Source of the DNA: Procambarus clarkii
Lineage: Eukaryota > Arthropoda > Malacostraca > Decapoda > Cambaridae
Length of the DNA stretch: 64,000 nt
Assembly (NCBI RefSeq): GCF_040958095.1
Contig: NC_091165.1
Location: 24,682,166-24,746,165, forward strand
Direction: 5' to 3'
Made by a program: the position numbers and the translations under genes. This document shows positions 12,337 through 50,318 of the stretch, piece after piece. A model generated the notes under the pieces. It worked only from the letters and a program-made list of their open reading frames with translations, ran no database searches and had not been told where the DNA came from. The stretch's first letter is position 1; every line of letters starts with the position of its first letter.

Positions 12337-15300
12337 TCATGAACATTGATACTTCATAAAGTCCACAAGTGTGTCTCTGTCGTAAACACCATTTTCGATT
12401 GCGCAAGAAGGTAATAGACCTTTAAGGCGATTAAGATCCGCATCTGAAATAGTAATTAATATACTAAGCATGAATTATATATATTAAAATAACCTAACCT
12501 AATCCACACATATTGGAATGAAAGTGATGTTTTGGTCTGTCCTCAACCCCTATCATGTAATTCTAGGGTGGGAAAAGCAGTCAACATTAGGCAAGACGGA
12601 AAGGGAAGGCAAAAGGATTTTAGGGGGTAATGGAGAAGTAAAGCATGAAAACAGAGCATACATAGGAACCTAAAGAAAACTGCATAAGGACTATTTCCCA
12701 CCTATATTCCTATATGAACTCAATTTTATGCATCTTCACATTCCCCCCCACCAATGCAAGTGTTACATGTGGTTCGACAATACGGTAAAAATGTGTTCAA
12801 GTGTGGTCTGACAAGTAAATATAAGCGTGTTTATATGTGGTTTGATGGGTCAGTCCAATTGTGTTAACGTATAGTTTGACAATTCGGTAAAAGTTTTTGA
12901 ACTATGGTGTCAACAAGCCAGTACAAGTGTGTGTCTGTGGTGCTGATGAGGTAATAAAAGTTTGTTTAACTGTATTATTGAGAGAATGTTTACCTGTGAT
13001 GTTGATGAGCCAATATAAATCACACCCGCAAAGAAGAGGGTTATTTGACACATCGATGGTTTCTGTTGTGTTTTTTAGCAGCTCTGAGAAAACATTTTCT
13101 GTCAGTTGTTCCAATAAATTGTGAGAAACATTAACCGTCACTGACCCAGACAGACCTAGGAGAATAGAGGAATACAGTATAATATCACACAATGTAATGC
13201 AGTAATATATATATATATATATATATATATATATATATATATATTAAAAAGCATATATATTAAAAAGCATATATATATATAGGCAAGTAATTAATAATAA
13301 ATTATTTGCAAAAAGAATTGGGAAAAACACATGTGGTATACTCAACATATAAGACTAACCTTGGAATGCTCCAGCCTCAATAGTTTCTATTGGGTTGGAA
13401 ATAATGTTAATGTATTCCATATCAGGGGAACCAAATGCAAGAGAAGCCTCAGTCAAGGAGGCTAAGCCACTCCTGGTTATCTCAATCTTCTTTAATGATG
13501 AAAGCAACCTTAAAAATATTAGCATATATTGTAATGTGGTCAATAGTTACACAAACATTATTGATATTAGCATCCTGATCTTCAGACCATGTTTAAATGA
13601 CCTATTTCAAAAACTCTGCATATTCTATGAGTTACAAATGCTATAAATTAATAAATGTAATTTTCATAAACCTGACACTATTTTTGTTGAAAGCTTTCAA
13701 TGCAGCAGCCTTATTTTAGTCATAATTAATGTTGTTGGGGACATGCAGCCTGTTATGTACGTCAAACTTATATCGAGGCCCCCCCCCCTGCCCAGAATGC
13801 AACTCTACAACAGTTAATTAGCTCCAAAGTACCTATTTACTGCTAGGTGGACAGAGGCATTATTGATAAGAAATGTGCCCAACCATTTCCATTCCGCCTG
13901 AGAGTCAAACTGGGTTTCCCAGTTTGAGAACAGGAAAATCTAACAAATGGTTAAATTTGTTAAGTTTGCAGGCAGAGTTGTAGAAAAAGTTTGGAGAGAA
14001 AAAATTATAAGGAAGTCAAGGATTTTTTCATTGATATATATGAAGCTAGTGTGATTTCAGTGCATGTAATTGATATTGGTGTGTACGGAGTTGACTACCC
14101 ACACCCAGGTGTTTGGGCCTTGTATATAAAATTTAGCATGGCTTCAGGAGAGGCCTCCAGACTTCCTGTTGATTCGGTAGAATCCAAGGTTTTATAGCTT
14201 TTTCTAGGTCAGGGTGGTATAGTGGTAGATGTTGTGGCTGGCAGTACGCTGGTTGGGGTTCGAGTCACTTAAGAGCTCTAGTCGATTTTCTCATTTATAT
14301 ATATCACATTAGTGTGATTTCTCTGTGTAATAATAATAATATTATTATTATTCTAAAGTACTAATTGGGAGGAGAAACCCTCCCAAAATTGGACACGAAA
14401 CATTCTAGGGATATATATATTACACTGAACTTATGTCCTAATCATGTTTAAATCAGAAAGTGTCCGATGCAAATATAGGGTTGCCCAATAAAAGGATTGT
14501 TCAGAAAACTGAACAAGGAGTCATTAATGACTGTACATTGTGCATGTAATACCAGTTCTCAAATAAGTGCCACCAGCATGTATAGACCATATATAATTTC
14601 ACCAAATACAAAATGTGTCTTGAGAAATATGAAAAGGCATATCATTACACTAGTCATTGAGTAGAGAGGTATGAGTTATGAGGCAAGATTAAAGGAATTC
14701 ATCTTCACATCACTGATTAAGAAAATAATTCATATGTAGAATTCAAATGTTTTGGGAACTTGCTCACACGTCAGCTGACAGTTTAATTAAAAACAAGACC
14801 CCCTAAGGCTGTAAAAAAAAAATACATTGTGTATGTGTCATGTATGTATGTATATATATATGACTATTATAGCAACAATTATACTCACTTAAAAGTGTTC
14901 CCTTGAATACTGTTTAGGTTGGTTTCTTGGAAGGTGATGAATTGTAGGTTTGGGGTTGAAGTGAAAAGGTTGTCTGGTAAGGATACAAGTTTTCTCATGC
15001 CCAGGAAGACAGAGGTAAGGGACGAGGACTCCAGCACAGGCAGTGTCTCATATGGCCCATTCTATAGATAAACATAGTAAAGATTTAAGCTACATTTTAT
15101 AGGATATTCTATAGTTGATCAAAAGTTATTAAATATTTTTACAGCATGCAAACACAGGAAGCGGATTAGAAGTCTTAATCCTATCATTAAATTTTTTTTT
15201 TTTTTACACAAATTTTCTTGGATTTAAATTTTTTAATAAACTCAGTTTGCCATGATGATTTCATTTAAAGAAAGAAACTTTTATTTAGCTATAATTAAAA

Positions 15301-48500: not shown

Positions 48501-50318
48501 TAAGGCATGTTAATATTTGAGTATAAAAGTGTTTAACATAAATTACTGTAAATCCACGTTGTCGGGGACAGGAAGCCTGTATATTTAGGTTTATCGAGGT
48601 CCCCCCCCCCCCCCTCCTTAGAGCAACGACTGATCCCTCCCCGGTATGCAATCCGCAACAATTGCCTAACTCCCAGATACGTATATTACTGCTAGACGAA
48701 CAGAGGCATAAAGTGAAAGAACAGCACATCTCCTGTGCCAGGTGAGTACGACGGGCTCACCATGTGTTGCTTAGAACTTTTTGTTCCCAGTAGCTGAATC
48801 TTAAACAACAAGAACGGTTAAATTGTTTACGGGCTATTCATGCCCGTGCCACCTCTGGGGTAAATTGTTCTCATTGAATATGGTGTTGTTATGCTGCGAA
48901 CTGCAGAATGTTTAAATTAGAGAGGTGAATGCTTAAAAAGAACGCCATCCACTGGTCTATATGAGCAAAGTAGTTAATGTAACATTGAATTAACGTTATC
49001 TGCGTTGATTTAACGTTAATTTACTGTTGAAGATTAAATGTTACGCGAGCACATATTATTCCCGATGAGCAGAGCATCAGAGGGACTCACCTTGGATGAA
49101 ATTTAGATGCTGCTTGAGACGCGGGAAGCAGGCGGTGACGATGGAGGCCATCACCACCACACCCATCACCACTCCTCTCACACCTGCAACATCAGTTCTC
49201 TTTAACCCTCTCTCCTCACACCTGCAACATCAGTTCTCTTTAACCCTCTCTCCTCACACCTGCAACACCACGACTCATTCACTGTCTCCCTAAAACGATC
49301 TAGAAATCATGATTAGTAGGGATCTTAAGCTTCATCTCTTACGAACCCATACATGCCCTTGTGTGCCAGTGCACAAGGGATCCTGACGGTCGAGTGGACA
49401 TATTCGTACACTGAAACGTGTATACAGTCTAATGTAGTTGATTGTAACCATGATTATATATATATATATATATATATATATATATATATATATATATATA
49501 TATATATATATATATATATATATATATATATATATATATATATATATATATATATATATATAATGTGTGTGTGTGAGTGTGCGTCAGCCTACAGTTTACA
49601 CCTATTGTCTTGAGTATGATCCTTTGTCGTGAGTGACAGTGAGTACCAGCATTATCCTCACTCTAATAAGACCTAATTGAATTCCTCAGCCCCCCATCCC
49701 AGCTGGGATTGCTTGTGGGCTTTTGATAGTGGTGGCTGGGGTGCTGGGGCTGTGAGAGAGACCCACTTAGTGGCACAGTGTATAAAGTTGAGACCATGTA
49801 CCTCTGCCAGTTGGCCAAGGCAGTCACAAAAACACGTGATTCGGTTTTTCTCCACGTAGGAGAAATAGAACAAAAATAATCCTAACACTCGTGATTTAAC
49901 ACATTTTCAAGAAGTACAGTAGGTATAATACTGGGCTTGAGCTTACATAACCCTTACACCTGAGTAGATCAAGAAACAAAAACATAATTTGATATCACTC
50001 ATCTTACCAATTTTAAAACTAATTTATAAGACGTACAAATTTAGTTTATAGCTTAGATGGTTTTATAATTGGTAAGAGTTATGATGGGTATAAAAGTATG
50101 TAAAGAATGGATATAGCTGCAGATGTCTGATTCCCAGAAGTGTGAGGGGGAAACTGCAGTTGGATTATTCCCATTGTGTCACGTCTAGCTTACCAAGAGA
50201 CTGACCTGGTCAGTCCGGTCCTGATCTGACCTGGTCTCTTTTTCCAGGAGACTGTTCAACTTACCAGGAGACAGACTAGCTTACGACGCAGTAGCTTACC
50301 TGTAAAGCAACTCGTCAT
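42519..50318 (-). CDS. LRR gene C: secreted leucine-rich-repeat protein
   Basis: Eight coding exons, transcription order: 50300-50318, 49091-49183, 48200-48425, 47417-47585, 45964-46136, 44131-44279, 43403-43567, 42519-42649. Total 1125 bases, 374 residues, with all phases joining. The signal-peptide core GVRGVVMGVVVMASIVTA is followed by an N-cap with Cys 46, 55, 57 and 67 (FPCP...PCTC). Irregular LRRs follow (for example LDSNNLTTVGSDVF), then the C-cap NPLSCGCDLFWL (Cys 320, 322), Cys 345 and FLKYQC (Cys 364). Exon 8 is more divergent, with an acidic/basic EEERNRTRG start and a longer tail. Exon 7 is one codon longer and lacks the LLKNTT stretch of A and B, so C is the outgroup of the three. 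Function is unknown; the family includes the 35-kDa partner of Oplophorus luciferase. Confidence 0.88.
43578..43890. repeat. 158-bp tandem duplication in intron 6 of gene C
   Basis: Two copies (43578-43735 and 43736-43890), each starting acgacacctcgagttaaatt. They differ by a few bases and a short indel in the AAT-rich middle. The first copy starts 11 bases beyond the exon 7 acceptor, but no exon sequence is duplicated. Confidence 0.92.
44545..45640 (-). mobile_element. Decayed Jockey/I-like LINE 3' end
   Basis: Reading the - strand leftwards gives an RNase H-like stretch (TALCSDKAELN), then LTDVVTARIRLGYKYL and CKVCG...LEHYILDCSKFESFRD, a C-terminal Cys/His motif of LINE ORF2. The 3' UTR that follows (44545-44700) is the gcaccccatacccatc repeat seen elsewhere, so this copy identifies the source of that repeat. 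Lies in intron 5 of gene C. Confidence 0.6.
46144..46206. repeat. (AAT)n microsatellite next to exon 5 of gene C
   Basis: About 20 AAT units begin 8 bases beyond the exon 5 acceptor, inside the region where the polypyrimidine tract or branch point should lie (on the - strand it reads ATT). Confidence 0.9.
46839..47088 (+). mobile_element. SINE family 2, well-preserved copy
   Basis: The head contains the B-box-like gggttcgatacccgg and gacgggatagaaatg. The body runs through gcctagcagtaaatagatag to the end block ctcctgtccccgacaa. Lies in intron 4 of gene C. Confidence 0.7.
47248..47313. mobile_element. Fold-back MITE 1, copy c (one end only)
   Basis: agtatgtcacatatgcac ... gtgcgagaacggg matches the right end of the copies at 18934 and 29194. 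The rest is absent. Lies in intron 4 of gene C. Confidence 0.75.
48556..48760 (-). mobile_element. SINE family 2 copy (antisense)
   Basis: Starts tgtcggggacaggaagcctg, contains a long C run and the attactgctagacgaacag block. It grades into a family 3 repeat at 48731-48865. Lies in intron 2 of gene C. Confidence 0.6.
48731..48865. repeat. Dispersed repeat family 3 copy
   Basis: ctgtgccaggtgagtacg, gggctcaccatg and gttcccagtagctgaatctt match 21452-21565. Confidence 0.55.
49455..49562. repeat. (AT)n microsatellite, about 108 bp
   Basis: Uninterrupted AT run in intron 1 of gene C. The YIYIYI open frame is an artefact. Confidence 0.95.

What the first reader, a model, noticed from the sequence alone, without database searches (positions are those of the whole stretch)
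12337..50318. Tandem array of three eight-exon secreted LRR genes with fully conserved splice phases
Hand assembly of exons gives three complete - strand genes (363, 364 and 374 residues) with the same eight-exon plan. The phases at each junction are identical in all three. Exons 3, 5, 6 and 7 have equal or near-equal lengths (235/235/226, 173/173/173, 149/146/149, 162/162/165). Cysteine caps are conserved: FPCP...PC.C at the N-terminus, CGCDL.WL and a final F(L/M).YQC. From recall, the layout is that of decapod proteins named after the 35-kDa non-catalytic subunit of Oplophorus luciferase. Most carriers of that name are in non-luminous species, so the true role (immune recognition, matrix or carrier) is open.
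Basis: partly seen in the sequence, partly recalled or inferred. Interest (0 to 1): 0.82.

Follow-up and report, generated by a model that had tools for sequence, protein, structure and literature searches.

The report
Three tandem secreted leucine-rich-repeat protein genes
Three neighbouring animal genes share one eight-exon plan and encode secreted, disulphide-capped binding proteins that probably have nothing to do with light; relatives elsewhere in the same genome seem to encode the same kind of protein from far fewer exons.

Summary
Three minus-strand genes (A 20117-12337, B 39283-23186, C 50318-42519) splice to 363, 364 and 374 residues, with the stated exon lengths, identical intron phases (1,1,2,0,2,1,1) and a 19-nt first coding exon in all three. 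They encode proteins with a four-cysteine N-cap, about ten leucine-rich repeats and a four-cysteine C-cap; identity 39-42%.

The window's own 4.03-Gb genome holds 13 further loci matching the N-cap region. Eleven could be modelled; they split from the array with support 100/99. Each has one large exon where the array has five or six. One junction, after exon 6 in phase 1, is shared by all 14 models. The array's other six introns were seen in none, and it lacks an intron before the C-cap predicted at 11 other loci. So the eight-exon plan belongs to the array, not to the family.

No match to the 19-kDa Oplophorus luciferase was found (no positive control), so a luciferase role is unlikely. Most likely these are soluble extracellular binding proteins, perhaps immune; function is inferred. 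Membership in the Oplophorus 35-kDa family is untested: its sequence was not on hand.

The parts
12337..20117 (-). Gene A: eight coding exons 20117-20099, 18252-18172, 17465-17231, 16857-16692, 15061-14889, 13508-13360, 13155-12994, 12443-12337; 363 aa
   Evidence: spliced without internal stop, GT-AG introns, phases 1,1,2,0,2,1,1
23186..39283 (-). Gene B: eight coding exons 39283-39265, 38125-38057, 33846-33612, 30842-30674, 30297-30125, 29058-28913, 24786-24625, 23307-23186; 364 aa
   Evidence: as gene A
42519..50318 (-). Gene C: eight coding exons 50318-50300, 49183-49091, 48425-48200, 47585-47417, 46136-45964, 44279-44131, 43567-43403, 42649-42519; 374 aa
   Evidence: as gene A
50368..50373 (-). 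TATA-like element 55 nt before the ATG of gene C (TATATT)
   Evidence: suggestive only
39334..39339 (-). TATA box 56 nt before the ATG of gene B (TATAAA)
   Evidence: TATAAA lies 54-58 nt before 0.18% of 1139 minus-strand ATGs in the window
20169..20174 (-). Weak TATA-like element (TATATG) about 57 nt before the ATG of gene A
   Evidence: seen by eye; fails all three consensus patterns used

Best explanation
The three genes are intact, old tandem duplicates that make secreted, acidic proteins. A hydrophobic leader (exons 1-2) is followed by an N-terminal four-cysteine cap, about ten leucine-rich repeats expected to form a curved solenoid, and a C-terminal four-cysteine cap; Pfam finds no other domain. 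They form a divergent branch of a larger family of such proteins in this genome. Shown here by computation: gene models, LRR content, conserved cysteines, separate branch, different intron plan. Inferred: they work as soluble non-catalytic binding proteins in haemolymph or extracellular matrix, holding a ligand or partner on the solenoid. The use I think likeliest is recognition of microbes or co-reception with Toll receptors, as reported for the shrimp secretory LRR-only protein LvCD14L. A role as partner of a luciferase is unlikely here.
For: Complete reading frames and matching phases. Pfam LRR_8 and LRR_5 in 3 of 3. Eight cysteines outside the leader invariant in 3 of 3; 5-7 N-glycosylation motifs per precursor; mass about 37-39 kDa and pI 4.1-4.4 with 25 residues removed. 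dN/dS 0.25-0.46 (NG86, three pairs; YN00 gave about 0.46 for two pairs and failed for A-C), with saturated dS, so purifying selection is likely but roughly measured. Best of the 259 PDB profile matches are LRR ectodomains or soluble LRR proteins: LRIG1, IGF acid-labile subunit, TLR3. The array is one clade with support 100/99. LvCD14L is a secreted LRR-only protein that binds microbial wall components and shrimp Tolls (PMC10178686, abstract and passages). No match to the 19-kDa luciferase in the genome.
Against: No expression, localisation or binding data. No signal-peptide or membrane predictor was run. Concave-face positions are no more variable than other mainly non-hydrophobic positions (mean identity 0.243 in 37 columns against 0.244 in 93), so there is no sign of ligand-driven diversification among the three. 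LvCD14L lacks a C-cap, unlike these. Genes with the Oplophorus name are also reported in gonad and matrix contexts, which fits non-immune roles. dS is saturated, so dN/dS is weak.
Confidence: 0.5

Rival explanations
1. Extracellular-matrix, cuticle or reproductive carrier protein: the capped solenoid binds another matrix or seminal protein, with no immune role.
For: Named relatives are listed under ECM-receptor interaction among genes changed in Eriocheir sinensis thoracic ganglia (PMC12565913), are hit by a sex-associated SNP in Penaeus vannamei, and are called down-regulated in Macrobrachium nipponense gonads by the citing paper (PMC11155064). Purifying selection and no concave-face diversification suit a fixed partner.
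Against: These are annotation, expression or association listings of named relatives whose identity with this array is untested. A Penaeus monodon relative is listed under Toll-like receptor signalling instead (PMC11371775).
Confidence: 0.3
2. Non-catalytic subunit of a coelenterazine luciferase in a luminous species.
For: Size, secretion and LRR content fit the description of the 35-kDa subunit (PMC9491549, passage).
Against: No match to the 19-kDa catalytic subunit at E<=10 in the 4.03-Gb genome, while in the same genome the gene B query found single exons of A and C, 54-86 residues at 38-55% identity. The tool warns that an empty answer without a positive control shows nothing.
Confidence: 0.03
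3. Loss rather than gain explains the odd exon plan: the many-intron layout of the array is ancestral, and the other branches lost five neighbouring introns together when a reverse-transcribed copy replaced their 5' part.
For: The five 5' introns of the array are missing together in 11 of 11 modelled relatives; one recombination with a cDNA could do that.
Against: The relatives have a predicted intron just before NPL.CGC that the array lacks, and the array has a 7/8 intron not seen in them, so one 5' event does not explain the whole difference. The junctions placed in the relatives are phase 1 whereas the array's are mixed (for the middle exons phase 1 was imposed by the search). The tree is unrooted.
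Confidence: 0.45
4. Pseudogenes or a prediction artefact.
For: No transcripts seen; two splice sites in A are weak (acceptor TAAG at exon 6, donor GTTTGT after exon 3).
Against: Three intact frames at 39-42% identity with conserved phases and cysteines.
Confidence: 0.02

Closest known systems
Oplophorus luciferase 35-kDa subunit (oplophorus-luciferin 2-monooxygenase non-catalytic subunit) and the decapod proteins named after it
   Same: LRR-containing, about 35 kDa, part of a secreted complex, separate from the catalytic subunit; the name is borne by genes of other decapods
   Different: No sequence on hand to compare. Relatives in the same genome have fewer coding exons than eight, and which branch is nearer to the Oplophorus protein is unknown. 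No 19-kDa partner found.
Shrimp LvCD14L, a secretory LRR-only protein (PMC10178686)
   Same: Signal peptide, N-cap, LRRs, no other domain, secreted
   Different: LvCD14L is 310 aa with seven LRRs and no C-cap; these have about ten LRRs and a four-cysteine C-cap
LRIG1, IGF acid-labile subunit and TLR3 ectodomain (PDB matches)
   Same: LRR solenoid; several stretches align, one of them reaching the C-cap of LRIG1
   Different: Generic LRR similarity only; no Ig or TIR domain among the Pfam matches of the array proteins

Membership tests
Secreted capped LRR-only proteins | LRR repeats over most of the mature protein | tested here: met
   Pfam LRR_8 and LRR_5 in 3 of 3; PDB profile matches; repeats in the first half are irregular and were placed by eye
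Secreted capped LRR-only proteins | Cysteine-rich N- and C-caps | tested here: met
   four N-terminal and four C-terminal cysteines invariant in 3 of 3; Pfam LRRCT_2 only at E 0.081 at best, in 2 of 3
Secreted capped LRR-only proteins | Signal peptide and no transmembrane segment | tested here: inconclusive
   hydrophobic N-terminus seen in a hydropathy scan and in the sequence; no signal-peptide or transmembrane predictor was run
Oplophorus 35-kDa non-catalytic subunit family | Sequence orthology to the Oplophorus protein | not testable with these tools
   sequence not held; the best PDB chains are generic LRR proteins
Oplophorus 35-kDa non-catalytic subunit family | Association with a 19-kDa catalytic subunit | tested here: inconclusive
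   0 matches in own genome, no positive control
Oplophorus 35-kDa non-catalytic subunit family | Gene plan shared with relatives | tested here: not met
   one of the array's seven junctions was found in the 11 modelled relatives; gene plan is not known to define the family
LvCD14L-like pattern recognition proteins | Binds microbial wall components and Tolls | not testable with these tools
   no bench data

The most novel reading that the evidence does not exclude
In one lineage of an otherwise few-exon, phase-1 gene family, nearly the whole intron layout was rewritten before the array duplicated: six introns gained, including a 19-nt first coding exon and phases 0 and 2, one lost, and only the exon 6/7 junction kept.
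Probability: 0.3. Interest if true: 0.55.

Novelty: new member of a known kind. Interest (0 to 1): 0.38.

Why it matters
The label 'Oplophorus luciferin monooxygenase non-catalytic subunit' is attached by annotation to genes of many decapods, and if these genes belong to that family it hides at least two gene architectures. The genome used here holds at least 16 loci of such LRR proteins and no catalytic partner was found in it, so their native role could be studied as a family. The contrast between an eight-exon branch and a few-exon branch in one genome gives a compact, testable case of wholesale intron gain or loss. No literature search was made on intron layouts of this family.

Tried and rejected
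Hypervariable binding face: the raw comparison suggested lower identity at concave positions (0.244 in 45 columns against 0.354 in 145, permutation p 0.036; a first pass with another register gave 0.267 against 0.363), but against other mainly non-hydrophobic columns the difference vanished (0.243 in 37 against 0.244 in 93); rejected.

Primer test: published Macrobrachium nipponense qPCR primers for 'Oplophorus-luciferin 2' (PMC8886218, section 9) were translated and matched to the three proteins. I used 21 of the 22 pairs of that table (the RNAi pair was left out). The Oplophorus pair scored 31, reached or exceeded by 12 of the 20 other pairs and by 121 of 300 shuffles; uninformative.

Relatives in viral contigs and in bacterial/archaeal genomes: 0 confirmed (60 and 43 pattern matches failed tblastn).

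TATA boxes as proof of promoters: only suggestive, since gene A fails the consensus.

Structure prediction was not used.

Rows dropped: of 13 relatives outside the array, C10 (in-frame stop, one N-cap cysteine lost) and the first C27 gene (large exon split between two frames) were left out of the tree of 14; two weaker hits (C40, and a second one on C32) were never fetched.
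Full report
What was checked. The window was searched for the reported motifs and for reading frames that match each other. Exons were then placed by reading splice sites and cross-gene similarity. The finding's limits, 12337 and 50318, are the last base of the stop codon of gene A and the first base of the start codon of gene C. All 21 introns are GT-AG. 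The weakest sites are in gene A (acceptor TAAG at exon 6, donor GTTTGT after exon 3). No fourth copy was seen in the window. Searches of the whole genome with B and with C hit C16 only inside the window; the tool scores only the best candidates, so this is not proof of absence.

What the proteins are. Each has a hydrophobic start (exons 1 and 2), an N-cap with four cysteines, about ten leucine-rich repeats (placed by eye) and a C-cap with four cysteines. These eight cysteines are invariant in all three. The mass is about 37-39 kDa and the pI 4.1-4.4 if 25 residues are removed, with five to seven N-glycosylation motifs in the whole precursor. Pfam finds LRR_8 and LRR_5 in three of three. The best solved structures are generic LRR proteins: LRIG1, the IGF acid-labile subunit and TLR3. 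Pairwise identity is 42, 39 and 40%. dN/dS by NG86 is 0.33, 0.25 and 0.46, with dS of 1.3 to 2.4 and therefore saturated; YN00 gave about 0.46 for A-B and B-C and failed for A-C. DNA comparison of the three gene regions (E<=1e-3) gave no shared introns: the strongest matches are a repeated fold-back element and most others short pieces, so the duplications are old. A TATA-like sequence lies 55-57 nt before each start codon, strict only in gene B.

Relatives in the same genome. The window lies in a 4.03-Gb assembly at C16:24682166-24746165. The search with B found 13 loci outside the array that match the N-cap region (C57, C26, C32, four on C48, two on C27, C35, C10, C38, C45). Searches with C and two relatives found subsets of these, two weaker loci not fetched (C40, a second on C32), and generic LRR genes that match only the repeats. 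I fetched 150 kb around the 13. Eleven could be modelled through the exon-6 position; the other two were dropped for a stop and a lost cysteine (C10) and for a frame break (the first C27 gene), though both show a phase-1 donor at the expected place.

Gene structure. In the eleven relatives the N-cap and most repeats sit in one large exon; in ten of them the frame also holds a start codon and hydrophobic leader, in C48c it does not. On an alignment of 14 proteins the array has junctions at columns 7, 70, 156, 212 and 271 that no relative shares. All 14 have a junction at column 322, phase 1 (the array's exon 6/7). Because every row was cut at that junction, the shared column is partly by construction; the support for it is that in all 14 rows the junction lies in phase 1, in the twelfth codon after an invariant asparagine (column 310), with no gap in between. 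The six genes C26, C32, C35, C45, C27b and C38 have an extra junction at column 268, phase 1, ten bases away from the array's column 271, phase 2. Near the C-cap, 11 loci (C26, the first C27 gene, C32, C35, C38, C45, four on C48, C57) have an acceptor in phase 1 just before the NPL.CGC motif or its C57 equivalent. In the array this point lies inside exon 7, and an intron not seen in the relatives lies after CGCDL.WL. In 10 of 10 stretches examined a candidate short exon fills the gap between the two junctions; the search imposed its phase and had no control, and the C26 and C32 candidates score lowest. So nine of the eleven tree genes were modelled to the last exon, with three coding exons on C48 and four in C26, C32, C35, C38 and C45; C57 lacks its middle part and C27b its end. 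The splice sites of the relatives are predictions of the same kind as those of the array.

Tree. The array is one clade with support 100/99. The C48 cluster with C57 (89/90) and the other six (84/81) form the rest; C57 and C38 are long branches whose place is unsure, and the root is not known. Identity is 37% within the array on this stretch and about 25% between the array and either other group. Ten columns are invariant in all 14, among them the four N-cap cysteines. The tree does not say whether the array gained introns or the others lost them. A single 5' replacement by a cDNA would remove five introns at once, but it does not explain the C-cap differences.

Function. The luciferase reading was tested by searching the own genome with NanoLuc, confirmed as the Oplophorus catalytic subunit by PDB match: no match at E up to 10. 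The tool warns that this lacks a positive control; on the other hand the gene B query found single exons of A and C, 54-86 residues at 38-55% identity. Literature, passages only unless stated: the 35-kDa subunit contains leucine-rich repeats and its function is unknown (PMC9491549). Genes with its name appear in tables or text on Penaeus monodon (Toll-like receptor signalling, PMC11371775), Eriocheir sinensis (ECM-receptor interaction, PMC12565913), Penaeus vannamei (a gene hit by a sex-associated SNP, PMC11155064) and Macrobrachium nipponense (primer table, PMC8886218, passage and section 9). Three genes with best hit 'oxygenase [Oplophorus gracilirostris]' stand in the section on positively selected genes of a vent-shrimp study, subunit not stated (PMC6953826). 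LvCD14L, a secretory LRR-only shrimp protein, binds microbial components and Tolls (PMC10178686, abstract and passages). From these I commit to a soluble extracellular binding protein, immune use first (about one in two), matrix or reproductive use second. The hypothesis of a diversifying concave face was tested and not supported.

Organism. That the host is a decapod is inferred from the named relatives and the large genome; the query meant to test it did not complete.

Verdict. The named family is plausible but untested. The eight-exon plan is, on these models, a property of this array and not of the family as seen in this genome, which is the new part.

Noticed in passing
1015-6704 (+): A two-frame LINE-type retroelement: 1015-2955 (no Pfam match) and 2949-6704 with endonuclease, reverse transcriptase and RNase H domains, frames open. 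A close relative of the first frame lies in L040 beside a family member on C26.
   Followed up: partly
36184-37835: A Penelope-like fragment (36386-37462, GIY-YIG domain just over its Pfam cut-off) inside intron 2 of gene B, opposite strand, flanked by 210-bp inverted repeats that are 100% identical. A similar reading frame occurs in L051 next to a damaged family member on C10.
   Followed up: partly
about 18931-19300 and 29191-29608: A fold-back element of about 400 bp in intron 1 of gene A and intron 5 of gene B, matching in both orientations, with a 65-bp piece in intron 4 of gene C.
   Followed up: no
L042-L046 (C48:6522001-6572000): A four-gene tandem array of the three-exon type, 45-66% identical to each other; the reading frame of one gene (C48c) shows no start codon for its leader.
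   Followed up: partly
L051 (C10): A family member with an in-frame stop and one lost N-cap cysteine, apparently a pseudogene.
   Followed up: no
41374-41612, 53786-54037, 18385-18521: Minisatellite-like tandem repeats (37/75 bp, 80 bp and 24 bp units) between, beside and inside the genes.
   Followed up: no
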